From contig NW_003117744.1 in the NCBI RefSeq assembly GCF_000003605.2, positions 1-64,000 of the forward strand: a stretch of 64,000 bases of DNA, read 5' to 3'. The stretch is from Saccoglossus kowalevskii. Lineage: Eukaryota; Hemichordata; Enteropneusta; Harrimaniidae. Shown in pieces: positions 375 to 64,000 of this stretch. Under the pieces are notes generated by a model, which was not told where the DNA came from, did no database searches, and worked only from the letters and a program-made list of their open reading frames with translations. Each line of letters starts with the position of its first letter. Position 1 is the stretch's first letter. The translations under genes and the position numbers were made by a program.

Positions 375-436
375 AAATACGCATAGTAGCATGCTATACG
401 GGAGTCAAACATGATATGGCAGTTATTTGGATCCAT
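362..436 (-). pseudogene. g0: 5' fragment of array gene at array edge
   Basis: The first 21-22 codons of the array gene (start at 436, one N missing after MDPNN) run into flanking DNA and stop after CEQ, giving 24 residues. The promoter is intact: TATAAA at 486-491 and predicted start at 461. There is no stem-loop. The truncation is the array boundary itself. Its promoter points at the zinc-finger gene whose ATG is at 280. Confidence 0.7.
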
Positions 437-646
437 GTCGATTGATGGTATGGCTGTATCTGATGGAAAACAGTAAATTATGTCGTTTATAAAAGGGGGT
501 CGGCCAATCAGCTTGATCTCGAACATGTCACTTTTTGAACCAATCAGAAATCCCCGTCGAAGTGACAAAGTCGTCCAAACACGAAAATAGTTGTCACATT
601 TTCACTTGTAGGCGGCGTGATTGAAGTTCTGCGTTATTGTTTCCAC

Positions 647-887
647 AGTTGTTATGGCAGTTGTTACTTGGATCCATGTCGATTGATGGTATGGCGGTAT
701 CTGATGGAAAACAGTAAATTCTGTCGTTTATAAAAGGGGGTCGGCCAATCAGCTTGATCTCGCACATGTCACTTTTTGAACCAATCAGAAATCCCCGTCG
801 AAGTGATAAAGTCGTCCAAACACGAAAATAGTTGTCACATTTTCACTTGTAGGCGGCGTGATTGAAGTTCTACGTTATTGTTTCCAC
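647..887 (-). promoter_or_regulatory. promoter module S1 (241 bp)
   Basis: First of three consecutive extra promoter modules upstream of g0. Each module holds two CCAAT boxes, TATAAA, the TCAGAT initiator and the ATG, but only six codons of the array gene; the frame then runs into the next module and stops at codon 28 (27 residues, ending LQVKM). The module joint carries a short tandem duplication of cagttgttatgg, absent from the gene-proximal promoter. Confidence 0.8.
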
Positions 888-1128
888 AGTTGTTATGGCA
901 GTTCTTACTTGGATCCATGTTGATTTATGGCATGGCGGTATCTGATGGAAAACAGTAAATTCTGTCGTTTATAAAAGGGGGTCGGCCAATCAGCTTGATC
1001 TCGCACATGTCACTTTTTGAACCAATCAGAAATCCCCGTCGAAGTGATAAAGTCGTCCAAACGCGAAAACAGTTGTCACATTTTCACTTGTAGGCGGCGT
1101 GATTGAAGTTCTACGTTATTGTTTCCAC
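888..1128 (-). promoter_or_regulatory. promoter module S2
   Basis: Second module of the g0 run. It is the subtype with gttgatttatggc just upstream of the ATG instead of gtcgattgatggt. Confidence 0.8.
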
Positions 1129-1369
1129 AGTTGTTATGGCAGTTGTTACTTGGATCCATGTCGATTGATGGTATGGCTGTATCTGATGGAAAACAGTAAA
1201 TTCTGTCGTTTATAAAAGGGGGTCGGCCAATCAGCTTGATCTCGCACATGTCACTTTTTGAACCAATCAGAAATCCCCGTCGAAGTAACAAAGCCGTCCA
1301 AACACGAAAATAGTTGTCACATTTTCACTTGTAGGCGGCGTGATTGAAGTTCTACGTTATTGTTTCCAC
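1129..1369 (-). promoter_or_regulatory. promoter module S3
   Basis: Third module of the run, abutting the unit spacer at 1370. The run of four promoters from 436 to 1369 is the longest in the window. Confidence 0.8.
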
Positions 1370-1922
1370 TAAACTTTGTTGTGAAGCGAGTTTTTTATTT
1401 GCGACGCCTATTTGTTACCAGACACAACCGCGAAAAGGTGACTCTTTGGTACGTCCCGGCAAATTAACAGTACATATTCTGAGAGCTTTGCATAATGTAG
1501 TAATACATGCATTTGACTATTGCAATTTCTAGTTCATTACTTGCTCAGTTTCGCATTGCCAAACTCTTATTCGCAACACATATGTATTAACATATATTTA
1601 CTCGACAAAAAGTTGGCGTTTTGTTGAGAACCGGAGATTAGCATTACATATTCTGAAAGCTTTAAATAATTATGTAATACTTGTAATTAATCATTTGAAA
1701 TTAGCTGCTATTACATAATCTGCTTCTACATGTTCTTTTACTTAACTGAATTATTCCAATGTGATGTGCGTCGAATGTTGGCGCTCTTTATTCTGTTTTA
1801 TGCATTATGACATTGACCTGAATTGGTTGAAATCGTTCTGATTTGCAAATTAATATGATATGGCAGTTGTTCATAGCATAGCGTGCAATAATCTGAGTGA
1901 TGGGATGGACAATGTACGGTAG
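1370..1922. other. representative unit spacer
   Basis: About 550 bp of AT-rich sequence lie between the promoter block and the HDE of the next gene; every other gene-free stretch over 300 bp in the array is a copy of this or of promoter modules. On the minus strand it holds AATAAA at 787-792 of the second kilobase (1787-1792) and an octamer-like TTGCAAAT near 1842-1849. A 62-codon frame on the plus strand begins with TTG, lacks ATG and has no promoter. I see no tRNA, 5S, snRNA or SINE signature. Confidence 0.7.
1787..1792 (-). promoter_or_regulatory. AATAAA polyadenylation-type signal downstream of stem-loop
   Basis: AATAAA on the coding strand, 152 nt beyond the stem-loop of g1 (the plus strand reads gcgctctttattctg). 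The same hexamer stands at the corresponding place in nearly every unit. Some animal histone genes carry such a backup signal. No strong GU-rich element follows it here. Confidence 0.45.
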
Positions 1923-1934
1923 TTCTCTTTTTGG
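1923..1934 (-). terminator. histone downstream element (U7-type), representative
   Basis: The coding strand reads CCAAAAAGAGAA starting about 11 nt after the stem-loop, the position and purine-rich composition of an HDE that pairs with U7 snRNA. Variants among copies: AAAAGGAGAA, AAAAAAAGAA, AAAAGCAGAA and AAAAGTCGAA, all A-rich at their 5' side. Confidence 0.75.
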
Positions 1935-1944
1935 AGTATGTGCT

Positions 1945-1960
1945 GGCCCTGAGAAGGGCC
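1945..1960 (-). terminator. histone 3' stem-loop of g1, representative
   Basis: The coding strand reads GGCCCTTCTCAGGGCC: a 6-bp stem with a 4-nt loop that satisfies the animal histone stem-loop consensus GGYYYUUHUNARRRCC at every position. It is preceded by ACAAAAC and followed by AGCACA. The stop codon of g1 is 22 nt upstream. In 53 of the 59 loci the element is present, usually 23-38 nt below the low coordinate of the gene; the type-B loop is often TCTG. Confidence 0.9.
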
Positions 1961-1982
1961 GTTTTGTATGAGTGTCGTAGCA

Positions 1983-2243
1983 CTATTGCTGACGACGATT
2001 TTGCCTTTTCTGGATAATTTTTAAAATCACCCAAGGAGCATAATCTACAGGATAATTGCCTTCTCCAAGAATTGAGATGACCTCTTCGACAGGTAATAAC
2101 TGTACGATGGATCGTGCCCAAGACGAGAATGCTCGTGTCCATTGCTGCGGTGGTCTCCTTGTCGAAAGAGGGCTGCATAAATACGCATAGTAGCATGCTA
2201 TACGGGAGTCAAACATGATATGGCAGTTGTTATTTGGATCCAT
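1983..2243 (-). CDS. g1: 86-aa protein with histone-type gene structure (type A)
   Basis: Reference copy of the array gene; function unknown. The start is the first ATG after the predicted transcription start at 2268 and has a favourable context (GACATGG); the frame is also open upstream through the TATA box, but that part would not be transcribed. Features: N- and C-containing N-terminus (MDPNNNCH), aromatic patch CYYAYL at 17-22, RRPP at 29-32, a helix-prone, partly hydrophobic stretch at about 36-60, GEGNYPVDYAPW at 60-71, and a basic tail KIIQKRQNRRQQ at 75-86. Ten K/R against six D/E give a basic protein. There is no signal peptide, membrane segment, intron or histone-fold similarity that I can recognise. 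This copy has C23 and Q34. Stem-loop 1945-1960. Confidence 0.6.
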   Translation of the reverse strand: MDPNNNCHIMFDSRIACYYAYLCSPLSTRRPPQQWTRAFSSWARSIVQLLPVEEVISILGEGNYPVDYAPWVILKIIQKRQNRRQQ

Positions 2244-2267
2244 GTCGATTGATGGTATGGCGGTATC

Positions 2268-2351
2268 TGATGGAAAACAGTAAATTCTGTCGTTTATAAA
2301 AGGGGGTCGGCCAATCAGCTTGATCTCGCACATGTCACTTTTTGAACCAAT
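2268..2351 (-). promoter_or_regulatory. core promoter of g1, representative
   Basis: On the coding strand, ATTGG boxes lie at 2347-2351 and 2311-2315, TATAAA at 2293-2298 and TCAGAT with its A at 2268. That A is 30 nt from the first T of TATAAA, the normal TATA-to-start distance, and the boxes sit near -80 and -45. The leader to the ATG at 2243 is 25 nt. For a typical type-A copy add 25 to the start-codon coordinate for the transcription start and 50-55 for TATAAA. An E-box-like CACATG lies between the CCAAT boxes. Confidence 0.75.
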
Positions 2352-3066
2352 CAGAAATCCCCGTCGAAGTGACAAAGTCGTCCAGACGCGAAAATAGTTG
2401 TCACATTTTCACTTGTAGGCGGCGTGATTGAAGTTCTACGTTATTGTTTCCACTAAACTTTGTTGTGAAGCGAGTTTTTTAATTGCGACGCCTATTTGTT
2501 ACTAGATACAACCGCGAAACGGTGACACTTTAGTACGTCCCGGCAAATTAACAATACATATTCTGAGAGCTTTGCATAATGTAGTAATACATGCATTTGA
2601 TTATTGCAATTTCTAGTTCATTACTTGCTCAGTTTCGCATTGCCAAACTCTTATTCGCAACACATATGTATTAACATATATTTACTCGACAAAAAGATGG
2701 CGTTTTGTTGAGAACCGGAGATTAATATTACATATTCTGAAAGCTTTAAATAATTATGTAATACTTGTAATTAATCATTTGAAATTACCTGCAATTACAT
2801 AAACTGCTTCTACATGCTCTTTTACTTAACTGAATTTTTCCAATTTGATGTGCGTCGAATGTTGGCGCTCTTTATTCTGTTTTTTGCATTATGACATTGA
2901 CCTGAATTGGTTGAAATCGTTCTGATTTGCAAATAAGTATGATATGACAGTTGTACATTGCATTACGTGCAATAATCGCAGTGATGGGATGGACAATGTA
3001 CGGTAGTTCTTTTTTTGGAGTATGTGCTGGCCCTCAGAAGGGCCGTTTTGTATGAGTGTCGTAGCA

Positions 3067-3327
3067 CTATTGCTGACGACGATTTTGCCTTTTCTGGATA
3101 ATTTTTAAAATCACCCAAGGAGCATAATCTACAGGATAATTGCCTTCTCCAAGAATTGAGATGACCTCTTTAACAGGTAATAACTGTACGATGGATCGTG
3201 CCCAAGACGAGAATGCCCGTGTCCATGGCTGCGGTGGTCTCCTTGTCGAAAGAGGGCTGGATAAATACGCATAGTAGCATGCTATACGGGAGTCAAACAT
3301 GATATGGCAGTTGTTATTTGGATCCAT
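3067..3327 (-). CDS. g2: array gene, type A, intact
   Basis: 86 residues, with K53 instead of E53 (PVKEV). Short unit. Stem-loop 3029-3044 with loop TCTG; HDE variant AAAAAAAGAA. Confidence 0.6.
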   Translation of the reverse strand: MDPNNNCHIMFDSRIACYYAYLSSPLSTRRPPQPWTRAFSSWARSIVQLLPVKEVISILGEGNYPVDYAPWVILKIIQKRQNRRQQ

Positions 3328-4150
3328 GTCGATTGATGGTATGGCGGTATCTGATGGAAAACAGTAAATTCTGTCGTTTATAAAAGGGGGTCGGCCAATC
3401 GGCTTAATCTCGCACATGTCACTTTTAGAACCAATCAGAAATCCCCGTCGAAGTGACAAAGTCGTCCAAACACGAAAATAGTCGTGACATTTTCACTTGT
3501 AGGCGGCGTGATTGAAGTTCTACGTTATTGTTTCCACTAAACTTTATTGTGAAGCGAGTTTTTTAATTGCGACGCCTATTTGTTACCAGATACAACCGCG
3601 AAAAGGTGACGCTTTAGTACGTCCCGGCAAATTAAAAATACATATTCTGAGAGCTTTGCATAATGTAGTAATACATGCATTTGATTATTGCAATTTCCAG
3701 TTCATTACTTGCTCAATTTCGCATTGCCAAACTCTTATTCACAACACATATGTATTAGCATATATTTACTCGACAAAAAGATGGCGTTTTGTTGACAACC
3801 GGAGATTAACATTACATATTCTGAAAGCTTTAAATAATTATGTAATACTTGTAATTAATCATTTGAAATTAGCTGCTATTACATAATCTGCTTCTACATG
3901 TTCTTTTACTTAACTGAATTATTCCAATGTGATGTGCGTTGAATGTTGGCGCTCTTTATTCTGTTTTATGCATTATGACATTGACCTGAATTGGTTGAAA
4001 TCGTTCTGATTTGCAAATTAATATGATATGGCAGTTGTTCATAGTATTACGTGCAATAATCGCAGTGATGGGATGGAAAATGTATGGTAGTTTTCTTTTT
4101 GGAGTATGTGCTGGCCCTGAGAAGGGCCGTTTTGTATGAGTGTCGTAGCA

Positions 4151-4410
4151 CTATTGCTGACGACGATTTTGCCTTTTCTGGATAATTTTTAAAATCACAC
4201 AAGGAGCATAATCTACAGGATAATTGCCTTCTTCAAGAATTGAGATGACCTCTTCGACAGGTAATAACTGTACGATGGATCGTGCCCAAGACGAGAATGC
4301 TCGGGTCATGGCTGCGGTGGTCTCCTTGTCGAAAAAGGGCTGAATAAATACGGATAGTAGCATGCTATACGGGAGTCCAACATGATATGGCAGTTGTTAT
4401 TTGGATCCAT
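4151..4410 (-). pseudogene. g3: array gene, type B, frameshifted
   Basis: A one-base deletion beside the codons for P34-W35 (near 4308) ends the frame after RRPPQP. The promoter is type B: TATAAA and the initiator are both altered (around 4430-4465), while the CCAAT boxes remain. Stem-loop 4113-4128. Confidence 0.65.
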
Positions 4411-4622
4411 GTCGATTGATAGTATGGCGGTATCATATGGAAAAATGTAAACAGCTGTCATTTTAAAAAAAGCGTTCGGCCAATCAGCATGATCTCGCAC
4501 ATGTCACTTTTCGAACCAATCGGAAATCCCCGTCGAAGTGACAAAGTCGTCCAAACACGAAAATAGTTGTCACATTTTCACTTGTAGGCGGCGTGATTGA
4601 AGTTCTACGTTATTGTTTCCAC

Positions 4623-4863
4623 AGTTGTTATGGCAGTTGTTACTTGGATCCATGTTGATTTATGGCATGGCGGTATCTGATGGAAAACAGTAAATTCTGT
4701 CGTTTATAAAAGGGGGTCGGCCAATCAGCTTGATCTCGCACATGTCACTTTTTGAAACAATCAGAAATCCCCGTCGAAGTGATAAAGTCGTCCAAACACG
4801 AAAATAGTTGTCACATTTTCACTTGTAGGCGGCGTGATTGAAGTTCTACGTTATTGTTTCCAC
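4623..4863 (-). promoter_or_regulatory. promoter module upstream of g3
   Basis: Extra 241-bp module with intact TATA and TCAGAT, lying behind the TATA-less promoter of g3. Confidence 0.75.
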
Positions 4864-5476
4864 TAAACTTTGTTGTGAAGCGAGTTTTTTAATTGCGACG
4901 CCTATTTGTTACCAGATACAACCGAGAAAAGGAGACGCTTTAGTACGTCCTGGCAAATTAACAATACATATTCTGAGAGCTTTGCATAATGTAGTAATAC
5001 ATGCATTTGATTATTGCAATTTCTAGTTCATTACTTGCTCAGTTTCGCATTGCCAAACTCTTATTCGCAACACATATGTATTAATATATATTTACTCGAC
5101 AAAAAGTTGGCGTTTTGTTGAGAACCGGAGATTAACATTACATATTCTGAAAGCTTTAAATAATTATGTAATACTTGTAATTAATCATTTGAAATTAGCT
5201 GCTATTACATAATCTGCTTCTACATGTTCTTTTACTTAACTGAATTATTCCAATGTGATGTGCGTCGAATGTTGGCGCTCTTTATTCTGTTTTATGCATT
5301 ATGACATTGACCTGAATTGGTTGAAATCGTCCTGATTTGCAAATTAATATGATATGGCAGTTGTTCATAGCATTACGTGCAATAATCTGAGTGATGGGAT
5401 GGACAATGTACGGTAGTTCTCTTTTTGGAGTATGTGCTGGCCCTGAGAAGGGCCGTTTTGTATGAGTGTCGTAGCA

Positions 5477-5737
5477 CTATTGCTGACGACGATTTTGCCT
5501 TTTCTGGATAATTTTTAAAATCACCCAAGGAGCATAATCTACAGGATAATTGCCTTCTCCAAGAATTGAGATGACCTCTTCGACAGGTAATAACTGTACG
5601 ATGGATCGTGCCCAAGACGAGAATGCTCGTGACCATGGCTGCGGTGGTCTCCTTGTCGAAAGAGGGCTGGATAAATACGCATAGTAGCATGCTATACGGG
5701 AGTCAAACATGATATGGCAGTTGTTATTTGGATCCAT
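5477..5737 (-). CDS. g4: array gene, type A, intact
   Basis: 86 residues, S36 instead of T36 (PWSRAF). Stem-loop 5439-5454. Confidence 0.6.
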   Translation of the reverse strand: MDPNNNCHIMFDSRIACYYAYLSSPLSTRRPPQPWSRAFSSWARSIVQLLPVEEVISILGEGNYPVDYAPWVILKIIQKRQNRRQQ

Positions 5738-5947
5738 GTCGATTGATGGTATGGCGGTATCTGATGGAAAACAGTAAATTCTGTCGTTTATAAAACGGGG
5801 TCGGCCAATCAGCTTGATCTCGCACATGTCACTTTTTGAACCAATCAGAAATCCCCGTCGAAGTAACAAAGTCGTCCAAACACGAAAATAGTTGTCACAT
5901 TTTCACTTGTAGGCGGCGTGATTGAAGTTCTACGTTATTGTTTCCAC

Positions 5948-6172
5948 AGTTGTTATGGCAGTTATTACTTGGATCCATGTTGATTGATGGTATGGCGGTA
6001 TCTGATGGAAAACAGTAAATTCTGTCGTTTATAAAAGGGGTTCGGCCAATCAGCTTGATCTCGCACATGTCACTTTTTGAACCAATCAGAAATCCCCGTC
6101 GAAGTGATAAAGTCGTCCAAACACGAAAATAGTTGTCACATTTTCACTTGTAGGCGGCGTGATTGTTTCCAC
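5948..6172 (-). promoter_or_regulatory. promoter module upstream of g4, 16 bp short
   Basis: Module of 225 bp: 16 bp are missing just before the spacer (near 6165), the same deletion as in the module at 39515. TATA, initiator and CCAAT are kept. Confidence 0.75.
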
Positions 6173-6785
6173 TAAACTTTATTGTGAAGCGAGTTTTTTA
6201 ATTGCGACGCCTATTTGTTACCAGATACAACCGCGAAAAGGTGACGCTTTAGTACGTCCCGGCAAATTAACAATACATATTCTGAGAGCTTTGCATAATG
6301 TAGTAATACATGCATTTGATTATTGCAATTTCTAGTTCATTACTTGCTCAGTTTCGCATTGCCAAACTCTTATTCGCAACACATATGTATTAACATATAT
6401 TTACTCGACAAAAAGTTGGCGTTTTGTTGAGAACCGGAGATTAGCATTACATATTCTGAAAGCTTTAAATAATTATGTAATACTTGTAATTAATCATTTG
6501 AAATTAGCTGCTATTACATAATCTGTTTCTACATGTTCTTTTACTTAACTGAATTATTCCAATGTGATGTGCGTCGAATGTTGGCGCTCTTTATTCTGTT
6601 TTATGCATTGTGACATTGACCTGAATTGGTTGAAATCGTTCTGATTTGCAAATAAGTATGATATGACAGTTGTACATTGCATAACGTGCAATAATCGCAG
6701 TGATGGGATGGACAATGTACGGTAGTTCTTTTTTTGGAGTATGTGCTGGCCCTCAGAAGGGCCGTTTTGTATAAGTGTCGTAGCA

Positions 6786-7046
6786 CTATTGCTGACGACG
6801 ATTTTGCCTTTTCTGGATAATTTTTAAAATCACCCAAGGAGCATAATCTACAGGATAACTGCCTTCTCCAAGAATTGAGATGACCTCTTCGACAGGTAAT
6901 AACTGTACGATGGATCGTGCCCAAGACGAGAATGCTCGTGTCCATGGCTGCGGTGGTCTCCTTGTCGAAAGAGGGCTGGATAAATACGGATAGTAGCATG
7001 CTGTACGGGAGTCAAACATGATATGGCAGTTGTTATTTGGATCCAT
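6786..7046 (-). CDS. g5: array gene, type A, intact
   Basis: 86 residues with T15, P20 (YYPYL) and S63 (GEGSYP). Stem-loop 6748-6763, loop TCTG. Confidence 0.6.
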   Translation of the reverse strand: MDPNNNCHIMFDSRTACYYPYLSSPLSTRRPPQPWTRAFSSWARSIVQLLPVEEVISILGEGSYPVDYAPWVILKIIQKRQNRRQQ

Positions 7047-7256
7047 GTCGATTGATGGTATGGCTGTATCTGATGGAAAACAGTAAATTCTCTCGTTTAT
7101 AAAAGGGGGTCGGCCAATCAGCTTGATCTCGCACATGTCACTTTTTGAACCAATCAGAAATCCCCGTCGAAGTAACAAAGTCGTCCAAACACGAAAATAG
7201 TTGTCACATTTTCACTTGTAGGCGGCGTGATTGAAGTTCTACGTTATTGTTTCCAC

Positions 7257-7497
7257 AGTTGTTATGGCAGTTATTACTTGGATCCATGTTGATTGATGGC
7301 ATGGCGGTATCTGATGGAAAACAGTAAATTCTGTCGTTTATAAAAGGGGTTCGGCCAATCAGCTTGATCTCGCACATGTCACTTTTTGAACCAATCAGAA
7401 ATCCCCGTCGAAGTGATAAAGTCGTCCAAACACGAAAATAGTTGTCACATTTTCACTTGTAGGCGGCGTGATTGAAGTTCTACGTTATTGTTTCCAC
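7257..7497 (-). promoter_or_regulatory. promoter module upstream of g5
   Basis: 241-bp extra module with intact TATA, initiator and CCAAT boxes. Confidence 0.75.
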
Positions 7498-8110
7498 TAA
7501 ACTTTGTTGTGAAGCGAGTTTTTTAATTGCGACGCCTATTTGTTACCAGATACAGCCGCGAAAAGGTGACGCTTTAGTACGTCCCGGCAAATTAACAATA
7601 CATATTCTGAGAGCTTTGCATAATGTAGTAATACATGCATTTGATTATTGCAATTTCTAGTTCATTACTTGCTCAGTTTCGCATTGCCAAACTCTTATTC
7701 GCAACACATGAGTATTAACATATATTTACTCGACAAAAAGTTGGCGTTTTGTTGAGAACCGGAGATTAACATTACATATTTTGAAAGCTTTAAATAATTA
7801 TGTAATACTTTTAATTATTCATTGAAATTAGCTGCTATTACATAATCTGCTTGTACATGTTTTTGTACTTAAGTGAATTATTCCAATTTGATGTGCGTCG
7901 AATGTTGGCGCTCTTTATTCTGTTTTATGCTTTATGACATTGACCTGAAATTGGTTGAAATCGTTCTGATTTGCAAATTAATATGATATGGCAGTTGTTC
8001 ATAGCATTGCGTGCAATAATCGCAGTGATGGGATGGACAATGCACGGTAGTTCGTTTTTTGGAGTATGTGCTGGCCCTCAGAAGGGCCGTTTTGTATGAG
8101 TGTCGTAGCA

Positions 8111-8371
8111 CTATTGCTGACGACGATTTTGCCTTTTCTGGATAATTTTTAAAATCACACAAGGAGTATAATCTACAGGATAATTGCCTTCTTCAAGAAT
8201 TGAGATGACCTCTTCGACAGGTAATAACTGTACGATGGATCGTGCCCAAGACGAGAATGCTCGGGTCCATGGCTGCGGTGGTCTCCTTGTCGAAAAAGGG
8301 CTGAATAAATTCGCATAGTAGCATGCTATACGGGAGTCAAACATGATATGGCAGTTGTTATTTGGATCCAT
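8111..8371 (-). CDS. g6: array gene, type-B body behind type-A promoter
   Basis: 86 residues, N21 (YYANLF), F23, F26, E60, T69 and C71. TATAAA is intact, so body and promoter come from different subfamilies. Stem-loop 8073-8088. Confidence 0.6.
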   Translation of the reverse strand: MDPNNNCHIMFDSRIACYYANLFSPFSTRRPPQPWTRAFSSWARSIVQLLPVEEVISILEEGNYPVDYTPCVILKIIQKRQNRRQQ

Positions 8372-8581
8372 GTCGATTGATAGTATAGCGATATCTGATG
8401 GAAAACAGTAAATTCTTTCGTTTATAAAAGGGGGTCGGCCAATCAGCTTGATCTCGCACATGTCACTTTTCGAACCAATCGGAAATCCCCGTCGAAGTGA
8501 CAAAGTCGTCCAAACACGAAAATAGTTGTCACATTTTCACTTGTAGGCGGCGTGATTGAAGTTCTACGTTATTGTTTCCAC

Positions 8582-8822
8582 AGTTGTTATGGCAGTTGTT
8601 ATTTGGATCCATGTCGATTGATGGTATGGCGGTATCTGATGGAAAACAGTAAATTCTGTCGTTTATAAAAGGGGGTCGGCCAATCAGCTTGATCTCGCAC
8701 ATGTCACCTTTTGAACCAATCAGAAATCCCCGTCGAAGTGACAAAGTCGTCCAAACACGAAAATAGTTGTCACATTTTCACTTGTAGGCGGCGTGATTGA
8801 AGTTCAACGTTATTGTTTCCAC
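8582..8822 (-). promoter_or_regulatory. promoter module upstream of g6
   Basis: 241-bp extra module, core elements intact. Confidence 0.75.
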
Positions 8823-9435
8823 TAAACTTTATTGTGAAGCGAGTTTTTTAATTGCGACGCCTATTTGTTACCAGATACAACCGCGAAAAGGTGACGCTTT
8901 AGTACGTCCCGGGAAATTAACAATACATATTCTGAGAGCTTTGCATAATGTAGTAATACATGCATTTGATTATTGCAATTTCTAGTTCATTACTTGCTCA
9001 GTTTCGCATTGCCAAACTCTTATTCGCCACACATATGTATTAACATATATTTACTCGACAAAAAGATGGCGTTTTGTTGAGAACCGGAGATTAACATTAC
9101 ATATTCTGAAAGCTTTAAATAATTATGTAATACTTGTAATTAATCATTTGAAATTAGCTGCTATTACATAATCTGCTTCCACATGTTCTTTTACTTAACT
9201 GAATTATTCCAATGTGATGTGCGTCGAATGTTGGCGCTCTTTATTCTGTTTTATGCATTATGACATTGACCTGAATTGGTTGAAATCGTTCTGATTTGCA
9301 AATAAGTATGATATGACAGTTGTACATTGCATTACGTGCAATAATCGCAGTGATGGGATGGACAATGTACGGTAGTTCTTTTTTTGGAGTATGTGCTGGC
9401 CCTCAGAAGGGCCGTTTTGTATAAGTGTCGTAGCA

Positions 9436-9696
9436 CTATTGCTGACGACGATTTTGCCTTTGCTGGATAATTTTTAAAATCACACAAGGAGCATAATCTA
9501 CAGGATAATTGCCTTCTTCAAGAATTGAGATGACCGCTTCGACAGGTAATAACTGTACGATGGATCGTGCCCAAGACGAGAATGCTCGGGTCCATGGCTG
9601 CGGTGGTCTCCTTGTCGAAAAAGGGCTGAATAAATTCGCATAGTAGCATGCTATACGGGAGTCCAACATGCTAGGGCAGTTGTTATTTGGATACAT
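9436..9696 (-). CDS. g7: array gene, type B, intact
   Basis: Reference type-B copy, 86 residues: begins MYPNNNCPSML, with N21, F23, F26, A54 (PVEAV), E60, C71 and Q79. In the promoter TATAAA has become TTTAAA-like and TCAGAT is replaced (9715-9760); CCAAT boxes remain. The +4 base of the start context is T instead of G. Stem-loop 9398-9413, loop TCTG. Confidence 0.55.
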   Translation of the reverse strand: MYPNNNCPSMLDSRIACYYANLFSPFSTRRPPQPWTRAFSSWARSIVQLLPVEAVISILEEGNYPVDYAPCVILKIIQQRQNRRQQ

Positions 9697-9908
9697 GTCG
9701 ATTGATAGTATGGCGGTATTATATGGAAAAATGTAAAGGGCTGTCGTTTTTAAAAAGGCGTTCGGCCAATCAGCATGATCTCGCACATGTCACTTTTCGA
9801 ACCAATCGGAAATCCCCGTCGAAGTGACAAAGTCGTCCAAACACGAAAATGGTTGTCACATTTTCACTTGTAGGCGGCGTGATTGAAGTTCTACGTTATT
9901 GTTTCCAC

Positions 9909-54377: not shown

Positions 54378-54638
54378 CTATTGCTGACGACGATTTTGCC
54401 TTTTCTGGATAATTTTTAAAATCACCCAAGGAGCATAATCTACAGGATAATTGCCTTCTCCAAGAATTGAGATGACCTCTTCGACAGGTAATAACTGTAC
54501 GACGGATCGTGCCCAAGTCGAGAATGCTCGTGTCCATGGCTGCGGTGGTCTCCTTGTCGAAAGAGGGCTGGATAAATACGCATAGTAGCATGCTATACGA
54601 GAGTCAAACATGATATGGCAGTTGTTATTTGGATCCAT
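54378..54638 (-). CDS. g49: array gene, type A, intact
   Basis: 86 residues, T41 (AFSTWARS), V46. Stem-loop 54340-54355. Confidence 0.6.
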   Translation of the reverse strand: MDPNNNCHIMFDSRIACYYAYLSSPLSTRRPPQPWTRAFSTWARSVVQLLPVEEVISILGEGNYPVDYAPWVILKIIQKRQNRRQQ

Positions 54639-55461
54639 GTCGATTGATGGTATGGCGGTATCTGATGGAAAACAGTAAATTCTGTCGTTTATAAAAGGGG
54701 GTCGGCCAATCAGCTTGATCTCGCACATGTCATTTTTTGAACCAATCAGAAATCCCCGTCGAAGTGATAAAGTCGTCCAAACACGAAAATAGTTGTCACA
54801 TTTTCACTTGTAGGCGGCGTGATTGAAGTTCTACGTTATTGTTTCCACTAAACTTTGTTGTGAAGCGAGTTTTTTAATTGCGACGCCTATTTGTTACCAG
54901 ATACAACCGCGAAACGGAGACACTTTAGTACGTCCCGGCAAATTAACAATACATATTCTGAGAGCTTTGCATAATGTAGTAATACATGCATTTGATTATT
55001 GCAATTTCTAGTTCATTACTTGCTCAGTTTCGCATTGCCAAACTCTTATTCGAAACACATATGTATTAACATATATTTACTCGACAAAAAGATGGCGTTT
55101 TGTTGAGAACCGGAGATTAACATTACATATTCTGAAAGCTTTAAATAATTATGTAATACTTGTAATTAATCATTTGAAATTAGCTGCTATTACATAATCT
55201 GCTTCTACATGTTCTTTTACTTAACTGAATTTTTCCAATTTGATGTGCGTCGAATGTTGGCGCTCTTTATTCTGTTTTATGCATTATGACATTGACCTGA
55301 ATTGGTTGAAATCGCTCTGATTTGCAAATTAATATGATATGGCAGTTGTTCATAGAATTACGTGCAATAATCTGAGTGATGGGATGGACAATGTACGGTA
55401 GTTCTCCTTTTGGAGTATGTGCTGGCCCTCAGAAGGGCCGTTTTGTATGAGTGTCGTAGCA

Positions 55462-55722
55462 CTATTGCTGACGACGATTTTGCCTTTTCTGGATAATTTT
55501 TAAAATCACCCAAGGAGCATAATCTACAGGATAATTGCCTTCTCCAAGAATTGAGATGACCTCTTCGACAGGTAATAACTGTACGATGGATCGTGCCCAA
55601 GACGAGAATGCTCGTGACCATGGCGGCGGTGGTCTCCTTGTCGAAAGAGGGCTGGATAAATACGCATAGTAGCATGCTATACGGGAGTCAAACATGATAT
55701 GGCAGTTGTTATTTGGATCCAT
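55462..55722 (-). CDS. g50: array gene, type A, intact
   Basis: 86 residues, PPPPWS at 31-36. Stem-loop 55424-55439, loop TCTG. Confidence 0.6.
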   Translation of the reverse strand: MDPNNNCHIMFDSRIACYYAYLSSPLSTRRPPPPWSRAFSSWARSIVQLLPVEEVISILGEGNYPVDYAPWVILKIIQKRQNRRQQ

Positions 55723-56544
55723 GTCGATTGATGGTATGGCGGTATCTGATGGAAAACAGTAAATTCTGTCGTTTATAAAAGGGGGTCGGCCAATCAGCTT
55801 GATCTCGCACATGTCACTTTTTGAACCAATCAGAAATCCCCGTCGAAGTGATAAAGTCGTCCAAACACGAAAATAGTTGTCACATTTTCACTTGTAGGCG
55901 GCGTGATTGAAGTTCTACGTTATTGTTTCCACTAAACTTTGTTGTGAAGCGAGTTTTTTAATTGCGACGCCTATTTGTTACCAGATACAACCGCGAAAAG
56001 GTGACGCTTTAGTACGTCCCGGCAAATTAACAATACATATTCTGAGAGCTTTGCATAATGTAGTAATACATGCATTTGATTATTGCAATTTCTAGTTCAC
56101 TACTTGCTCAGTTTCGCATTGCCAAATTCTTATTCGCAACACATATGTATTAACATATATTTACTCGACAAAAAGATGGCGTTTTGTTGAGACCCGGAGA
56201 TTAACATTACATATTCTGAAACTTTAAATAATTATGTAATACTTGTAATTAATCATTTGAAATTAGCTGCTATTACATAATCTGCTTCCACATGTTCTTT
56301 TACTTAACTGAATTATTCCAATGTGATGTGCGTCGAATGTTGGCGCTCTTTATTCTGTTTTATGCATTATGACATTCACCTGAATTTGTTGAAATCGTTC
56401 TGATTTGCAAATAAGTATGATATGACAGTTGTACATTGCATTACGTGCAATAATCGCAGTGATGGGATGGACAATGTACGGTAGTTCTTTTTTTGGAGTA
56501 TGTGCTGGCCCTCAGAAGGGCCGTTTTGTATAAGTGTCGTAGCA

Positions 56545-56805
56545 CTATTGCTGACAACGATTTTGCTTTTTCTGGATAATTTTTAAAATCACACAAGGAG
56601 CATAATCTACAGGATAATTGCCTTCTTCAAGAATTGAGATGACCTCTTCGACAGGTAATAACTGTACGATGGATCGTGCCCAAGACGAGAATGCTCGGGT
56701 CCATGGCTGCGGTGGTCTCCTTATCGAAAAAGGGCTGAATAAATACGCATAGTAGCAAGCTATACGGGAGTCCAACATGCCAGGGCAGTTGTTATTTGGA
56801 TACAT
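56545..56805 (-). CDS. g51: array gene, type B, intact
   Basis: 86 residues, starts MYPNNNCPGML; I28, K80 and C84. Type-B promoter. Stem-loop 56507-56522, loop TCTG. Confidence 0.55.
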   Translation of the reverse strand: MYPNNNCPGMLDSRIACYYAYLFSPFSIRRPPQPWTRAFSSWARSIVQLLPVEEVISILEEGNYPVDYAPCVILKIIQKKQNRCQQ

Positions 56806-57017
56806 GTCGATTGATAGTATGGCGGTATTATATGGAAAAATGTAAAGGGCTGTCGTTTTTAAAAAGGCGTTCGGCCAATCAGCATGATCTCGCACATGTC
56901 ACTTTTCGAACCAATCGGAAATCCCCGTCGAAGTGACAAAGTCGTCCAAACACGTAAATGGTTGTCACATTTTCACTTGTAGGCGGCGTGATTGAAGTTC
57001 TACGTTATTGTTTCCAC

Positions 57018-57258
57018 AGTTGTTATGGCAGTTGTTACTAGGATCCATGTTGATTTATGGCATGGCGGTATCTGATGGAAAACAGTAAATTCTGTCGTTT
57101 ATAAAAGGGGGTCGGCCAATCAGCTTGATCTCGCACATGTCACTTTTTGAACCAATCAGAAATCCCCGTCGAAGTGACAAAGTCGTCCAAACACGAAAAT
57201 AGTTGTCACATTTTCACTTGTAGGCGGCGTGATTGAAGTTCAACGTTATTGTTTCCAC
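57018..57258 (-). promoter_or_regulatory. promoter module upstream of g51
   Basis: 241-bp extra module, core elements intact. Confidence 0.75.
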
Positions 57259-57871
57259 TAAACTTTATTGTGAAGCGAGTTTTTTAATTGCGACGCCTAT
57301 TTGTTACCAGATACAACCGCGAAAAGGTGACGCTTTAGTACGTCCCGGCAAATTAACAATACATATTCTGAGAGCTTTGCATAATGTAGTAATACATGCA
57401 TTTGATTATTGCAATTTCTAGTTCATTACTTGCTCAGTTTCGCATTGCCAAACTCTTATTCGCAACACATATGTATTAACATATATTTACTCGACAAAAA
57501 GATGGCGTTTTGTTGAGAACCGGAGATTAACATTACATATTCTGAAAGCTTTAAATAATTATGTAATACTTGTAATTATTCATTTGAAATTAGCTGCTAT
57601 TACATAATCTGCTTCCACATGTTCTTTTACTTAACTGAATTATTCCAATGTGATGTGCGTCGAATGTTGGCGCTCTTTATTCTGTTTTATGCATTATGAC
57701 ATTGACCTGAATTGGTTGAAATCGTTCTGATTTGCAAATAAGTATGATATGACAGTTGTAAATTGCATTACGTGCAATAATCGCAGTGATGGGATGGACA
57801 ATGTACGGTAGTTCTTTTTTTGGAGTATGTGCTGGCCCTCAGAAGGGCCGTTTTGTATGAGTGTCGTAGCA

Positions 57872-58135
57872 CTATTGCTGACGACGATTTTGCCTTTTCT
57901 GGATAATTTTTAAAATCACACAAGGAGCATAATCTACAGGATAATTGCCTTCTTCAAGAATTGAGATGACCTCTTCGACAGGAAATAACTGTACGATGGG
58001 ATCGTGCCCAAGACGAGAATGCTCGGGTCCATGGCTGCGGTTGTCTCCTTGTCGAAAAAGGGCTGATAAATACGCATAGTAGCATGCTATACGGGAGTCC
58101 AACATGATGATAGGGCAGTTGCTATTTGGATCCAT
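57872..58135 (-). CDS. g52: array gene, type B, two compensating frameshifts
   Basis: 87 residues. One base is lost near codon 23 and one gained near codon 46, so about 22 middle residues are read in another frame while both ends remain normal. Extra codon PIIML as in g8. Type-B promoter. Stem-loop 57834-57849. Confidence 0.45.
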   Translation of the reverse strand: MDPNSNCPIIMLDSRIACYYAYLSALFRQGDNRSHGPEHSRLGHDPIVQLFPVEEVISILEEGNYPVDYAPCVILKIIQKRQNRRQQ

Positions 58136-58347
58136 GTCGATTGATAGTATGGCGGTATCATATGGAAAATGTAAAGGGCTGTCGTTTTAAAAAGGCCTTC
58201 GGCCAATCAGCATGATCTCGCACCATGTCACTTTTCGAACCAATCGGAAATCCCCGTCGAAGCGACAAAGTCGTCCCAAATACGAAAATAGTTGTCACAT
58301 TTTCACTTGTAGGCGGCGTGATTGAAGTTCTACGTTATTGTTTCCAC

Positions 58348-58588
58348 AGTTGTTATGGCAGTTGTTACTTGGATCCATGTTGATTTATGGCATGGCGGTA
58401 TCTGATGGAAAACAGTAAATTCTGTCGTTTATAAAAGGGGGTCGGCCAATCAGCTTGATCTCGCACATGTCACTTTTTGAACCAATCAGAAATCCCCGTC
58501 GAAGTGACAAAGTCGTCCAAACACGAAAATAGTTGTCACATTTTCACTTGTAGGCGGCGTGATTGAAGTTCTACGTTATTGTTTCCAC
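58348..58588 (-). promoter_or_regulatory. promoter module upstream of g52
   Basis: 241-bp extra module, core elements intact. Confidence 0.75.
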
Positions 58589-59201
58589 TAAACTTTATTG
58601 TAAAGCGAGTTTTTTATTGCGACGCCTATTTGTTACCAGATACAACCGCGAAAAGGTGACGCTTTAGTACGTCCCGGCAAATTAACAATACATATTCTGA
58701 GAGCTTTGCATAATGTAGTAATACATGCATTTGATTATTGCAATTTCTAGTTCATTACTTGCTCAGTTTCGCATTGCCAAACTCTTATTCGCAACGCATA
58801 TGTATTAACATATATTTACTCGACAAAAAGATGGCGTTTTGTTGAGAACCGGAGATTAACATTACATATTCTGAAAGCCTTAAATAATTATGTAATACTT
58901 GTAATTAATCATTTGAAATTAGCTGCTATTACATAATCTGCTTCCACATGTTCTTTTACTTAACTGAATTATTCCAATGTGATGTGCGTCGAATGTTGGC
59001 GCTCTTTATTCTGTTTTATGCATTATGACATTGACCTGAATTGGTTGAAATCGTTCTGATTTGCAAATAAGTATGATATGACAGTTGTACATTGCATTAC
59101 GTGCAATAATCGCAGTGATGGGATGGACAATGTACGGTAGTTCTTTTTTTTGGAGTATGTGCTGACCCTGAGAAGGGCCGTTTTGTATGAGTGTCGTAGC
59201 A

Positions 59202-59462
59202 CTCTTGCTGACGTCGATTTTGCCTTTTCTGGATATTTTTTAAAATCACACAAGGAGCATAATCTACAGGATAATTGCCTTCTTCAAGAATTGAGATGAC
59301 CTCTTCGACAGGTAATAACTGTACGATGGATCGTGCCCAAGACGAGAATGCTCGGGTCCATGGCTGCGGTGTTCTCCTTGTCGAAAAAGGGCTGAATAAA
59401 TACGCATAGTAGCATGCTATACGGCAGTCCAACATGATAGGGCAGTTGTTATTTGGATACAT
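59202..59462 (-). pseudogene. g53: array gene, type B, stop codon lost
   Basis: The TAG at 59202 is GAG, so the frame continues through the stem-loop to 59097. If the mRNA ends at the stem-loop it has no stop. The stem-loop (59164-59179) also has one G-C pair changed to G-U. Starts MYPNNNCPIML. Confidence 0.6.
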
Positions 59463-59642
59463 GTCGATTGATAGTATGGCGGGATCATATGGAAAAATGT
59501 AAAGGGCTGTCGTTTTTAAAAAGGCGTTCGGCCAATCAGCATGATCTCGCACATGTCACTTTTCGAACCAGTCGGAAATCCCCGTCGAATCGACAAACTC
59601 GTCCAAACACGAAAATAGTTGTCACATTTTCACTTGTAGGCG

Positions 59643-59835
59643 GATAATTGCCTTCTTCAAGAATTGAGATGACCTCTTCGACAGGTAATAACTGTACGAT
59701 GGATAGTGCCCAAGACGAGAATGCTCGTGTCCATGGCTGCGGTGGTCTCCTTGTCGAAAGAGGGCTGGATAAATACGCATAGTAGCATGCTATACGGGAG
59801 TCAAACATGATTTGGCAGTTGTTATTTGGATCCAT
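59643..59835 (-). pseudogene. g54: array gene, 3'-truncated
   Basis: Open from 59835 to NYP (L44, E60), then fused near 59643 to the region upstream of the g53 promoter; the fused frame stops at 59536. No stem-loop. Confidence 0.65.
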
Positions 59836-60045
59836 GTCGATTGATGGTATGGCTGTATCTGATGGAAAACAGTAAATTCTCTCGTTTATAAAAGGGGGTC
59901 GGCCAATCAGCTTGATCTCGCACATGTCACTTTTTGAACCAATCAGAAATCCCCGTCGAAGTAACAAAGTCGTCCAAACACGAAAATAGTTGTCACATTT
60001 TCACTTGTAGGCGGCGTGATTGAAGTTCTACGTTATTGTTTCCAC

Positions 60046-60286
60046 AGTTGTTATGGCAGTTGTTACTTGGATCCATGTTGATTTATGGCATGGCGGTATC
60101 TGATGGAAAACAGTAAATTCTGTCGTTTATAAAAGGGGGTCGGCCAATCAGCTTGATCTCGCACATGTCACTTTTTGAACCAATCAGAAATCCCCGTCGA
60201 AGTGACAAAGTCGTCCAAACACGAAAATAGTTGTCACATTTTCACTTGTAGGCGGCGTGATTGAAGTTCTACGTTATTGTTTCCAC
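60046..60286 (-). promoter_or_regulatory. promoter module upstream of g54
   Basis: 241-bp extra module, core elements intact. Confidence 0.75.
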
Positions 60287-60901
60287 TAAACTTTATTGTG
60301 AAGCGAGTTTTTTTTATTGCGACGCCTATTTGTTACCAGATACAACCGCGAAAAGGTGACGCTTTAGTACGTCCCGGCAAATTAACAATACATATTCTGA
60401 GAGCTTTGCATAATGTAGTAATACATGCATTTGATTATTGCAATTTCTAGTTCATTACTTGCTCAGTTTCGCATTGCCAAACTCTTATTCGCAACACATA
60501 TGTATTAACATATATTTACTCGACAAAAAGGTGGCGTTTTGTTGAGAACCGGAGATTAACATTACATATTCTGAAAGCTTTAAATAATTATGTAATACTT
60601 GTAATTAATCATTTGAAATTAGCTGCGTATTACATAATCTGCTTCTACATGTTCTTTTACTTAACTGAATTATTTCAATTTGATGTGCGTCGAATGTTGG
60701 CGCTCTTTATTCTGTTTTATGCATTATGACATTGACCCGAATTTGTTGAAATCGTTCTGATTTGCAAATAAGTATGATATGACAGTTGTACATAGCATTA
60801 CGTGCAATAATCGCAGTGATGGGATGGACAATGTACGGTAGTTCTCTTTTTGGAGTATGTGCTGGCCCTGAGAAGGGCCGTTTTGTATGAGTGTCGTAGC
60901 A

Positions 60902-61135
60902 CTATTACTGACGACGATTTTGCCTTTTCTGGATAATTTTTAAAATCACACAAGGAGCATAATCTACAGGATAATTGCCTTCTTCAAGAATTGAGATGAC
61001 CTCTTCGACAGGTAATAACTGTACGATGGATCGTGCCCAAGACGAGAATGCTCGGGTCCATGGCTGCGGTGGTCTCCTTGTCGAAAAAGGGCTGAATAAA
61101 TACGGATAGTAGCATGCTATACGGGAGTCCAACAT
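60902..61135 (-). pseudogene. g55: array gene, type B, 5'-truncated, no promoter
   Basis: Same joint as g22 at about 61136. Opens at M10; the last Q codon is TAA so it ends QNRRQ. Stem-loop 60864-60879. Confidence 0.7.
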
Positions 61136-61337
61136 TATATTTATTCTGTTTTATGCATTATGACATTGACCTGAATTGGTTGAAATCGTCCTGATTTGCA
61201 AATTAATATGATATGGCAGTTGTTCATAGCATTACGTGCAATAATCTGAGTGATGGGATGGACAATGTACGGTAGTTCTCTTTTTGGAGTATGTGCTGGC
61301 CCTGAGTAGGGCCGTTATGTATGTGTGTGTCGTAGCA

Positions 61338-61597
61338 CTATTGCTGACGACGATTTGCCTTTTCTGGATAATTTTTAAAATCACCCAAGGAGCATAATCT
61401 ACAGGATAATTGCCTTCTCCAAGAATTGAGATGACCTCTTCGACAGGTAATAACTGTACGATGGATCGTGCCCAAGACGAGAATGCTCGTGACCATGGCT
61501 GCGGTGGTCTCCTTGTCGAAAGAGGGCTGGATAAATACGCATAGTAGCATGCTATACGGGAGTCAAACATGATATGGCAGTTGTTATTTGGATCCAT
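61338..61597 (-). pseudogene. g56: array gene, type A, C-terminal frameshift
   Basis: One T lost near 61355 shifts the frame after KRQ; it reads on through the stem-loop to 61232. Stem-loop 61298-61313 has loop ACTC, departing from the consensus U at the first loop position. Confidence 0.65.
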
Positions 61598-62414
61598 GTC
61601 GATTGATGGTATGGCGGTATCTGATGGAAAACAGTAAATTCTGTCGTTTATAAAAGGGGGTCGGCCAATCAGCTTGATCTCGCACATGTCACTTTTTGAA
61701 CCAATCAGAAATCCCCGTCGAAGTGATAAAGTCGTCCAAACACGAAAATAGTTGTCACATTTTCACTTGTAGGCGGCGTGATTGAAGTTCTACGTTATTG
61801 TTTCCACTAAACTTTGTTGTGAAGCGAGTTTTTTAATTGCGACGCCTATTTGTTACCAGATACAACCGCGAAAATGTGACGCTTTAGTACGTCCCGGCAA
61901 ATTAACAATTCTCAGAGCTTTGCATAATGTAGTAATACTTGCATTTGATTATTGCAATTTCTAGTTCATTACTTGCTCAGTTTCGCATTGCCAAACTCTT
62001 ATTCGCAACACATATGTATTAATATATATTTACTCGACAAAAAGTTGGCGTTTTGTTGAGAACCGGAGATTAACATTACATATTCTGAAAGCTTTAAATA
62101 ATTATGTAATACTTGTAATTAATCATTTGAAATTAGCTGCTACTACATAATCTGCTTCTACATGTTCTTTTACTTAACTGAATTATTCCAAGGTGATGTG
62201 CGTCGAATGTTGGCGCTCTTTATTCTGTTTTATGCATTATGACATTGACCTGAATTGTTTGAAATCGTTCTGATTTGCAAATTAATATGATATGGCAGTT
62301 GTTCATAGCATTACGTGCAATAATCTGAGTGATGGGATGGACAATGTACGGTAGTTCTCCTTTTGGAGTATGTGCTGGCCCTGAGAAGGGCCGTTTTGTA
62401 TGAGTGTCGTAGCA

Positions 62415-62675
62415 CTATTGCTGACGACGATTTTGCCTTTTCTGGATAATTTTTAAAATCACCCAAGGAGCATAATCTACAGGATAATTGCCTTCTCTAA
62501 GAATTGAGATGACCTCTTCGACAGGTAATAACTGTATGATGGATCGTGCCCAAGACGAAAATGCTCGTGTCCATGGCTGCGGTGGTCTCCTTGTCAAAAG
62601 AGGGCTGGATAAATGCGCATAGTAGCATGCTATACGGGAGTCAAACATGATATGGCAGTTGTTATTTGGATCCAT
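62415..62675 (-). CDS. g57: array gene, type A (LLTRR/R60 group), intact
   Basis: 86 residues, H21 (YYAHLS), LLTRR, I47, R60. Stem-loop 62377-62392. Confidence 0.6.
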   Translation of the reverse strand: MDPNNNCHIMFDSRIACYYAHLSSPLLTRRPPQPWTRAFSSWARSIIQLLPVEEVISILREGNYPVDYAPWVILKIIQKRQNRRQQ

Positions 62676-63498
62676 GTCGATTGATGGTATGGCGGTATCT
62701 GATGGAAAACAGTAAATTCTGTCGTTTATAAAAGGGGGTCGGCCAATCAGCTTGATCTCGCACATGTCACTTTTTGAACCAATCAGAAATCCCCGTCGAA
62801 GTGACAAAGTCGTCCAGACGCGAAAATAGTTGTCACATTTTCACTTGTAGGCGGCGTGATTGAAGTTCTACGTTATTGTTTCCACTAAACTTTGTTGTGA
62901 AGCGGGTTTTTTAATTGCGACGCCTATTTGTTACCAGATACAACCGCGAAACGGTGACACTTTAGTACGTCCCGGCAAATTAACAATACATATTCTGAGA
63001 GCTTTGCATAATGTAGTAATACATGCATTTGATTATTGCAATTTCTAGTTCATTACTTGCTCAGTTTCGCATTGCCAAACTCTTATTCGCAACACATATG
63101 TATTAACATATATTTACTCGACAAAAAGATGGCGTTTTGTTGAGAACCGGAGATTAACATTACATATTCTGAAAGCTTTAAATAATTATGTAATACTTGT
63201 AATTAATCATTTGAAATTAGCTGCTATTACATAATCTGCTTCTACATGTTCTTTTACTTAACTGAATTTTTCCAATTTGATGTGCGTCGAATGTTGGCGC
63301 TCTTTATTCTGTTTTATGCATTATGACATTGACCTGAATTGGTTGAAATCGCTCTGATTTGCAAATTAATATGATATGGCAGTTGTTCATAGCATCACGT
63401 GCAATAATCTGAGTGATGGGATGGACAATGTACGGTAGTTCTCCTTTTGGAGTATGTGCTGGCCCTGAGAAGGGCCGTTTTGTATGAGTGTCGTAGCA

Positions 63499-63759
63499 CT
63501 ATTGCTGACGACGATTTTGCCTTTTCTGGATAATTTTTAAAATCACCCAAGGAGCATAATCTACAGGATAATTGCCTTCTCCAAGAATTGAGATGACCTC
63601 TTCGACAGGTAATAACTGTACGATGGATCGTGCCCAAGACGAGAATGCTCGTGACCATGGCGGCGGTGGTCTCCTTGTCGAAAGAGGGCTGGATAAATAC
63701 GCATAGTAGCATGCTATACGGGAGTCAAACATGATAGGGCAGTTGTTATTTGGATCCAT
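63499..63759 (-). CDS. g58: array gene, type A, intact; last full copy
   Basis: 86 residues, P8 (NNNCPIMF), PPPPWS at 31-36. The unit continues with promoter and spacer to the window end. Stem-loop 63461-63476. Confidence 0.6.
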   Translation of the reverse strand: MDPNNNCPIMFDSRIACYYAYLSSPLSTRRPPPPWSRAFSSWARSIVQLLPVEEVISILGEGNYPVDYAPWVILKIIQKRQNRRQQ

Positions 63760-64000
63760 GTCGATTGATGGTATGGCTGTATCTGATGGAAAACAGTAAA
63801 TTCTGTCGTTTATAAAAGGGGGTCGGCCAATCAGCTTGATCTCGCACATGTCACTTTTTGAACCAATCAGAAATCCCCGTCGAAGTAACAAAGTCGTCCA
63901 AACACGAAAATAGTTGTCACATTTTCACTTGTAGGCGGCGTGATTGAAGTTCTACGTTATTGTTTCCACTAAACTTTATTGTGAAGCGAGTTTTCTTTAA

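What the first reader, a model, noticed from the sequence alone, without database searches (positions are those of the whole stretch)
375..64000. Tandem family of an unrecognised 86-aa gene built exactly like a replication-dependent histone gene
Seen: each unit has paired CCAAT boxes, TATA, initiator, a 25-nt leader, an intronless 86-codon frame, a stop 22 nt before a perfect histone stem-loop, then an HDE; 59 loci, 36 full-length and open. Known: in animals this architecture is essentially confined to replication-dependent histone genes. Inference: a non-histone, basic, multicopy protein expressed in S phase, or a histone gene whose coding part was replaced. I cannot match the protein (basic tail KRQNRRQQ, core GEGNYPVDYAPW) to any family.
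Basis: partly seen in the sequence, partly recalled or inferred. Interest (0 to 1): 0.92.

Follow-up and report, generated by a model that had tools for sequence, protein, structure and literature searches.

The report
Tandem array with histone-type mRNA ends
A long tandem array in an animal genome carries the RNA-end signal normally reserved for histone genes, but its small open reading frame shows no sign of being kept as a protein; the same signal also sits behind a transposase and another non-histone gene elsewhere in that genome.

Summary
On the minus strand, 59 stretches of an 86-codon frame lie head to tail; 49-50 are full length and 37 open. In 47 of 50 the stop lies 22 nt before a histone-type stem-loop; 46 of 50 have a histone downstream element (HDE). 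Stem-loop plus HDE matches the 3' ends of 23 of 24 host histone genes compared (85.5-94.5% over 49-76 nt). The promoter resembles histone promoters in motifs only.

The protein reading is not supported. In 73 same-length copies, changes fall as expected for non-coding DNA (23 synonymous, 84 nonsynonymous; neutral 25/78). The same test detects constraint in a second, 202-aa family. No histone homology is secure; no fold is predicted.

The premise that this 3' end is confined to histones fails in this genome: it also ends a constrained 202-aa non-histone family, DDE_1 (pogo-type) transposase copies and a dispersed repeat seen on 23 contigs.

Best reading: a satellite-like array of histone-type transcription units; its RNA, if made, would be S-phase and non-polyadenylated; its ORF is not maintained. 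The spread of the histone 3'-end cassette to mobile and multicopy non-histone families is the more novel result. No RNA data were available.

The parts
375..64000 (-). Tandem array; basic unit about 1084 bp, often about 1325 bp because a 241-bp promoter module is duplicated; transcription units read on the minus strand
   Evidence: array covers all but 374 nt of the 68,896-nt contig
1983..2243 (-). Reference copy: 86-codon open frame plus stop; in this and many other copies the frame is also open upstream of the ATG (116 codons from an upstream ATG, up to 141 from stop to stop)
1945..1960 (-). Histone-type stem-loop GGCCCTTCTCAGGGCC of the reference copy, 22 nt after the stop
1915..1936 (-). 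Histone downstream element region CTCCAAAAAGAGAACTACCGTA, near-identical to host histone genes
2293..2301 (-). TATA box TTTTATAAA at -58 from the ATG
2309..2318 (-). Second CCAAT box (CTGATTGGCC on the coding strand) at -75
2344..2354 (-). First CCAAT box (CTGATTGGTTC on the coding strand) at -111
422..1369 (-). 3.9 head-to-tail copies of the 241-bp promoter module (CCAAT, CCAAT, TATA, ATG plus about 25 bp of the frame) without the rest of the unit

Best explanation
This is a satellite-like tandem array built from a histone-type transcription unit. Each unit has a CCAAT/CCAAT/TATA Pol II promoter by motif and a 3' end (stem-loop plus HDE) homologous to that of the host's replication-dependent histone genes. 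If transcribed, the RNA would be cut after the stem-loop by the SLBP/U7 machinery and accumulate in S phase without a poly(A) tail (inferred). The 86-codon frame between them is not being kept for its amino-acid sequence. The array is spread and homogenised by unequal exchange, including duplication of the 241-bp promoter module (inferred). It is one of several non-histone multicopy families in this genome that carry the histone 3'-end cassette; the others found are a constrained 202-aa gene family, a DDE_1 transposase family and a dispersed repeat. Shown: the anatomy, the homology of the 3' end, the lack of detectable coding constraint among copies, and the presence of the cassette in the other families. 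Inferred: transcription, processing, S-phase timing and the route of spread.
For: 3' end: the unit consensus matches 23 of the 24 host histone genes compared, over 49-76 nt at 85.5-94.5% identity (the 24th, H2Ai in L034, has no such end). Against mononucleotide shuffles the scores are 86-105 versus a maximum of 48, with L010, which has no stem-loop, the exception. Coding test: 62 copies, 103 distinct variants, frame 0 gives 20 synonymous / 79 nonsynonymous / 4 stop against a neutral 23.6/71.9/7.5; 73 copies, 111 variants, 23/84/4 against 25.4/77.6/8.0; all-pairs pN/pS 1.30; codon positions equally variable at 0.031/0.036/0.029; indel rate 0.072 per 100 nt per row in the ORF against 0.03-0.08 in the downstream spacer. 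Positive control: the same test on 5 copies of the 202-aa family gives 78 synonymous against 47 expected, P<0.001, and detects it in 300 of 300 draws of 103 variants. Other families with the cassette. The host has an SLBP RNA-binding domain.
Against: Variation within the array is young (about 4 substitutions per copy), and in a family with at least 150 matches selection on each copy is weak, so a functional protein could escape this test; the control compares older copies and is an easier case. Stops are somewhat fewer than neutral (4 against 8.0 distinct, P=0.10; 5 copies against 15.4 expected, range 4-29). 59 of 73 full copies are open. Indels are rarer in the ORF (0.072) than in the promoter region (0.187). 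That the 3'-end homology ends near the functional element suggests a past period of selection on that element. Against processing: 10 of 50 copies have loop base G, which by recall departs from the loop consensus; the stem-loop is not more conserved within the array than other windows (37th percentile); U7 snRNA was not identified.
Confidence: 0.6

Rival explanations
1. A functional multicopy gene family encoding a fast-evolving basic 86-aa (or N-terminally longer, up to 141-aa) nuclear protein made in S phase like a histone, with relaxed or positive selection and concerted evolution.
For: 59 of 73 full copies open; complete promoter-to-HDE architecture in 23 of 50; nonsynonymous changes slightly above neutral, 84 against 77.6, P=0.11, and stops slightly below, P=0.10; indels rarer than in the promoter region; the 202-aa family shows that a constrained non-histone protein can use this 3' end in this genome.
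Against: No purifying selection, and no significant positive selection; indels as frequent as in the downstream spacer; an overlapping frame of 105-132 codons, running through the stem-loop, is open in 27 copies of the window without being coding by the same test; no family match; AlphaFold2 mean pLDDT 54.7.
Confidence: 0.2
2. A decayed core-histone gene (H2A- or H2B-like) amplified as a pseudogene array: the frame is what is left of a histone coding region.
For: ORF residues RAFSSWARSIVQLLPVEEVISILGEGNY align with H2A (typed human-type sequence, p=0.006 of 500 shuffles; one host H2A p=0.019-0.035 and another 0.10-0.20); DNA is end-to-end colinear with several host H2B genes (best p=0.005 of 200 shuffles); the 3' end is histone-derived.
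Against: Neither match survives a family-wide dinucleotide-shuffle test (H2B p=0.063, H2A p=0.60, H3 p=0.19, H4 p=0.48) and nhmmer reports nothing for the unit. By their start coordinates H2A and H2B point to different frames, as chance matches would. Five histone types were tried.
Confidence: 0.15
3. A product of a mobile element that carries the histone 3'-end cassette (as the DDE_1 family does) and was then amplified in tandem.
For: Other cassette-bearing families here are mobile or dispersed; the unit's 3' flank matches intact members of the 202-aa family over 70 nt at 84-87% from near the stop onward.
Against: No significant similarity of the ORF or spacer to the 20 cassette-bearing loci outside the 3' end; the 86-aa matches scored lie only in the five array contigs (150 of 213 candidates scored). 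Terminal repeats and target-site duplications were not sought.
Confidence: 0.2

Closest known systems
Replication-dependent histone genes of animals (stem-loop RF00032, SLBP, U7/HDE)
   Same: Stem-loop plus HDE near-identical in sequence, short distance from the stop, TATA and CCAAT motifs, no intron within the frame, tandem copies
   Different: Coding part is not a recognisable histone and not constrained; two positions that are the same in the 23 host histone ends printed differ in the array (GCCACC there, GCCAGC here; CATCC there, CATAC here); promoter alike in motifs only
Satellite / macrosatellite DNA
   Same: Head-to-tail, homogenised units; unit and module duplications; five contigs of together about 207 kb, of which about 95 kb were read and are array
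   Different: The unit carries a full histone-type promoter and 3' end and a mostly open frame
202-aa non-histone gene family of the same genome (C1928, C4654, C4713 and others)
   Same: No intron in the frame, multicopy and partly tandem, ends 25 nt before the same stem-loop plus HDE; 3' flank alignable for 70 nt
   Different: Frame under strong purifying selection (pN/pS 0.17-0.34 among near copies); no sequence relation to the 86-aa frame found
DDE_1 (pogo-type) transposase family of the same genome (C2222, C3943, C1358)
   Same: Carries the same stem-loop plus HDE shortly after the stop (40 nt in C2222)
   Different: Encodes a transposase; dispersed; in the two longest copies read the stem has 5 of 6 pairs

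Membership tests
Replication-dependent histone gene | Histone 3' stem-loop (6-bp stem, 4-base loop) | tested here: met
   47 of 50 full copies with a perfect stem, 37 with loop C; RF00032 E 5e-6 to 4e-4 but below gathering score
Replication-dependent histone gene | Histone downstream element matching the host's | tested here: met
   46 of 50; alignment to 23 of 24 host histone genes
Replication-dependent histone gene | Encodes a histone | tested here: not met
   No Pfam family; no secure homology
Replication-dependent histone gene | Promoter homologous to histone promoters | tested here: inconclusive
   Motifs shared, but no DNA match outside the 3' end at E 0.01
Replication-dependent histone gene | Non-polyadenylated S-phase mRNA | not testable with these tools
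   No RNA data
Maintained protein-coding gene | Purifying selection in the frame | tested here: not met
   within-array variation only; the control family passes the same test
Satellite DNA | Long head-to-tail homogenised array | tested here: met
Satellite DNA | Non-coding | tested here: inconclusive
   No constraint found, but 59 of 73 copies are open
DNA transposon / TE | Terminal repeats, dispersed copies, target-site duplications | not tested
   No dispersed copy among the scored matches (150 of 213 candidates); ends not analysed

The most novel reading that the evidence does not exclude
In this animal the histone-specific 3'-end processing route has been taken over by selfish and multicopy non-histone sequences: a transposase family, a constrained 202-aa family, a dispersed repeat and this tandem array. 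Together they form a class of non-polyadenylated, replication-linked non-histone RNAs.
Probability: 0.45. Interest if true: 0.85.

Novelty: new variant of a known kind. Interest (0 to 1): 0.6.

Why it matters
Histone-type 3' ends are treated as specific to replication-dependent histone genes. A genome in which a transposase, a conserved non-histone gene family and a tandem array all carry the stem-loop and HDE would give natural substrates for asking what the cassette alone confers (S-phase timing, escape from polyadenylation) and whether mobile elements exploit replication-linked expression. For the array itself, a strong-looking gene architecture with an unconstrained frame warns against calling genes from architecture alone.

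Tried and rejected
Histone ancestry of the ORF: H2A at protein level and H2B at DNA level looked promising by eye but failed controlled tests. One single copy scored p=0.0005 against H2A; this is one copy and not the consensus. Viral origin: no relative of the 86-aa frame in viral contigs, no exact stem-loop pattern there. Structure: no confident fold, so no fold search was run. U7 snRNA: 11 matches, none above cut-off, with hits in 12 of 14 control genomes; the best one did not look like a clean U7; an alternative pattern search did not complete. Stem-loop conservation within the array: not lower than other windows (37th percentile), so it gives no support for function. Literature: searches (listings and starts of abstracts only), passages of PMC1924863 and PMC8210747; none of what I saw reported histone stem-loops on transposons or non-histone families. 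Most subscription papers and all bioRxiv preprints are not held, so this is no proof of absence.

Rows dropped before counts: 5 of 48 units with more than 12% difference to consensus before the diversity and indel counts; copies not 261 nt long before selection counts (11 of 73; 4 of 15 extra copies; two overlapping copies were removed there, and a recheck agrees once its wrong assumption about strand is allowed for). In one search one histone gene without a stem-loop (H2Ai) was dropped. In one search the control family used 5 of the 7 copies aligned. The 20 stem-loop loci were picked by hand from the first 100 of 288 places.
Full report
What was checked. The window is G000:C1112:1-64000 of a 572-Mb, 4,830-contig genome. 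It has animal-type histones: eight full-length H2A matches at 83-90% identity to the typed human-type sequence, and H3 and H4 genes matching at 100% in several places. The array lies on the minus strand, starts at position 375 and runs to the end of the contig at 68,896. Basic unit 1084 bp; the common larger spacing comes from an extra 241-bp promoter module.

Architecture. In 50 full copies (49 plus one aligned to position 258): 46 have two or more CCAAT boxes, 40 TATAAA, 47 a perfect stem, 46 an HDE, 47 the stop exactly 22 nt before the stem-loop, 23 everything at once. Rfam's histone stem-loop model matches at E 5e-6 to 4e-4 but stays under its gathering score.

The 3' end is histone-derived. 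The unit was compared with 24 histone genes of the same genome. 23 align over 49-76 nt at 85.5-94.5% identity, the best identity being an H4 gene in L032 (94.5%); the 24th, H2Ai in L034, has no stem-loop. The match covers the stem-loop, HDE and a few flanking bases and then stops. The promoter and spacer have no DNA match to the histone clusters at E 0.01; the promoter is similar in motifs only. Two positions that are the same in the 23 host histone ends printed differ in the array: GCCACC there and GCCAGC here, CATCC there and CATAC here.

The frame shows no constraint. Distinct changes among 62 copies of equal length are 20 synonymous, 79 nonsynonymous and 4 stop against a neutral 23.6, 71.9 and 7.5; with 11 more copies 23, 84 and 4 against 25.4, 77.6 and 8.0. 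The three codon positions vary equally. Pairwise pN/pS is 1.30 in this frame and 0.73 and 0.68 in the other two. Short indels are about as frequent as in the downstream spacer (0.072 against 0.03-0.08 per 100 nt per row) and rarer than in the promoter region (0.187). The same test on the 202-aa family described below gives 78 synonymous against 47 expected, P<0.001, and detects it in every one of 300 draws of 103 variants. Limits: the array's variation is young and redundancy weakens selection per copy; stops are slightly rarer than neutral (P about 0.10). The control compares older copies, some of them broken, and is therefore an easier case.

Relation to histones. Similarity to H2A (protein) and H2B (DNA) was tested with shuffles. 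The best single comparisons reach p=0.005-0.035, others do not, and family-wide dinucleotide-shuffle tests do not (H2B 0.063, H2A 0.60); nhmmer finds nothing. Histone descent of the coding part is therefore open. AlphaFold2 gives no confident fold (mean pLDDT 54.7). Pfam gives no family and the PDB nothing below E 0.9.

The cassette is not confined to histones here. A genome-wide pattern for stem-loop plus HDE finds 288 places (up to 3 mismatches), control 0; a second pattern, none of whose 100 listed places lies in an array contig, finds 120 (up to 2 mismatches), control 0. I read 20 places, chosen by hand from the first 100 listed, outside the histone contigs already read: 5 are histone genes (two H2B, an H1 part, an H4 part, an H3) and 15 have no histone. 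Of the 15, 7 belong to a 202-aa family: intact frames end 25 nt before the stem-loop, pN/pS is 0.17-0.34 between one copy and four near copies and 0.61-0.65 for two old fragments; there are 51 matches genome-wide, many of them fragments. Three carry DDE_1 transposase sequence: L055 (Pfam DDE_1 E 1.7e-28), with the stop 40 nt before the stem-loop and part of a 502-aa open frame; L056, a decayed relative (112 of 203 compared codons identical in residue; differences by codon position 66/46/132); and L052 (DDE_1 E 3e-8). A fourth, L053, matches weakly (E 0.002). In L055 and L056 the stem has 5 of 6 pairs; in the other 18 of the 20 loci it has 6 of 6, so the transposase stem-loops may be weakened. 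Five of the 15, L053 among them, remain unassigned; L050 is partly N. A further variant (CCACACACTCC or CCACACACTTC) occurs on 23 different contigs among the 100 places listed; two copies read are about 87-91% alike over 312 and 365 aligned nt, a dispersed repeat. Its decayed ORF recalls a HIRAN domain by eye only; Pfam does not confirm it.

Machinery. One SLBP RNA-binding domain in two pieces on C1837. U7 was not found above cut-off.

How it most likely works (inference). The CCAAT/TATA promoter would recruit Pol II; the transcript would be cut after the stem-loop by the SLBP/U7 route and accumulate in S phase. The frame's product, if any, is not maintained. The array grows and is homogenised by unequal exchange. 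Because the other cassette carriers include a transposase family, mobile elements may have spread the cassette or adopted it for replication-linked expression; this is the bold reading and needs RNA data.

Literature. Searches (listings and abstract starts) gave no report of histone stem-loops on transposons or on such non-histone families. The library lacks most subscription papers.

Noticed in passing
L054, L058 (C1928, C4654), also C4713, C26, C689, C46, C96: A 202-aa non-histone gene family with no intron in the frame ends 25 nt before the histone stem-loop plus HDE and is under strong purifying selection; partly tandem, with many dispersed fragments. No Pfam family at cut-off and no PDB relative.
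   Followed up: partly
L055 (C2222:752099-753001), L056 (C3943), L052 (C1358): DDE_1 (pogo-type) transposase family with the histone stem-loop plus HDE after the stop; one long open copy (502 codons), most listed relatives carry stops.
   Followed up: partly
L063, L064 and 21 further contigs listed: Dispersed repeat carrying a stem-loop/HDE variant CCACACACTCC, about 87-91% alike between two copies read.
   Followed up: partly
about 9-12 nt upstream of the stem-loop in most H2A/H2B/H3 genes, L044, L055, L056, L062, L063 and the 202-aa family: A second small hairpin of varying sequence precedes the histone stem-loop; mean best stem 4.69 in 47 loci (not independent) against 3.33 in mononucleotide-shuffled sequence; weak or absent in the H4 genes; the array has a 4-bp version by eye.
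   Followed up: partly
window 2-280, minus strand: Cysteine-rich ORF at the array's left edge, repeated genome-wide (35 matches); also at the edge of C439 (67-345) and inside array contig C2493 (21064-21342), so probably a mobile element inserted in the array.
   Followed up: partly
window 5373-5690, minus strand, and the same frame in other copies: A second frame of 105-132 codons overlaps the 86-aa one and runs through the stem-loop; open in 27 copies of the window and without coding constraint.
   Followed up: yes
L034 / L010 (C2595:436813-437187): An H2A gene with no histone stem-loop after the stop, perhaps a polyadenylated copy.
   Followed up: no
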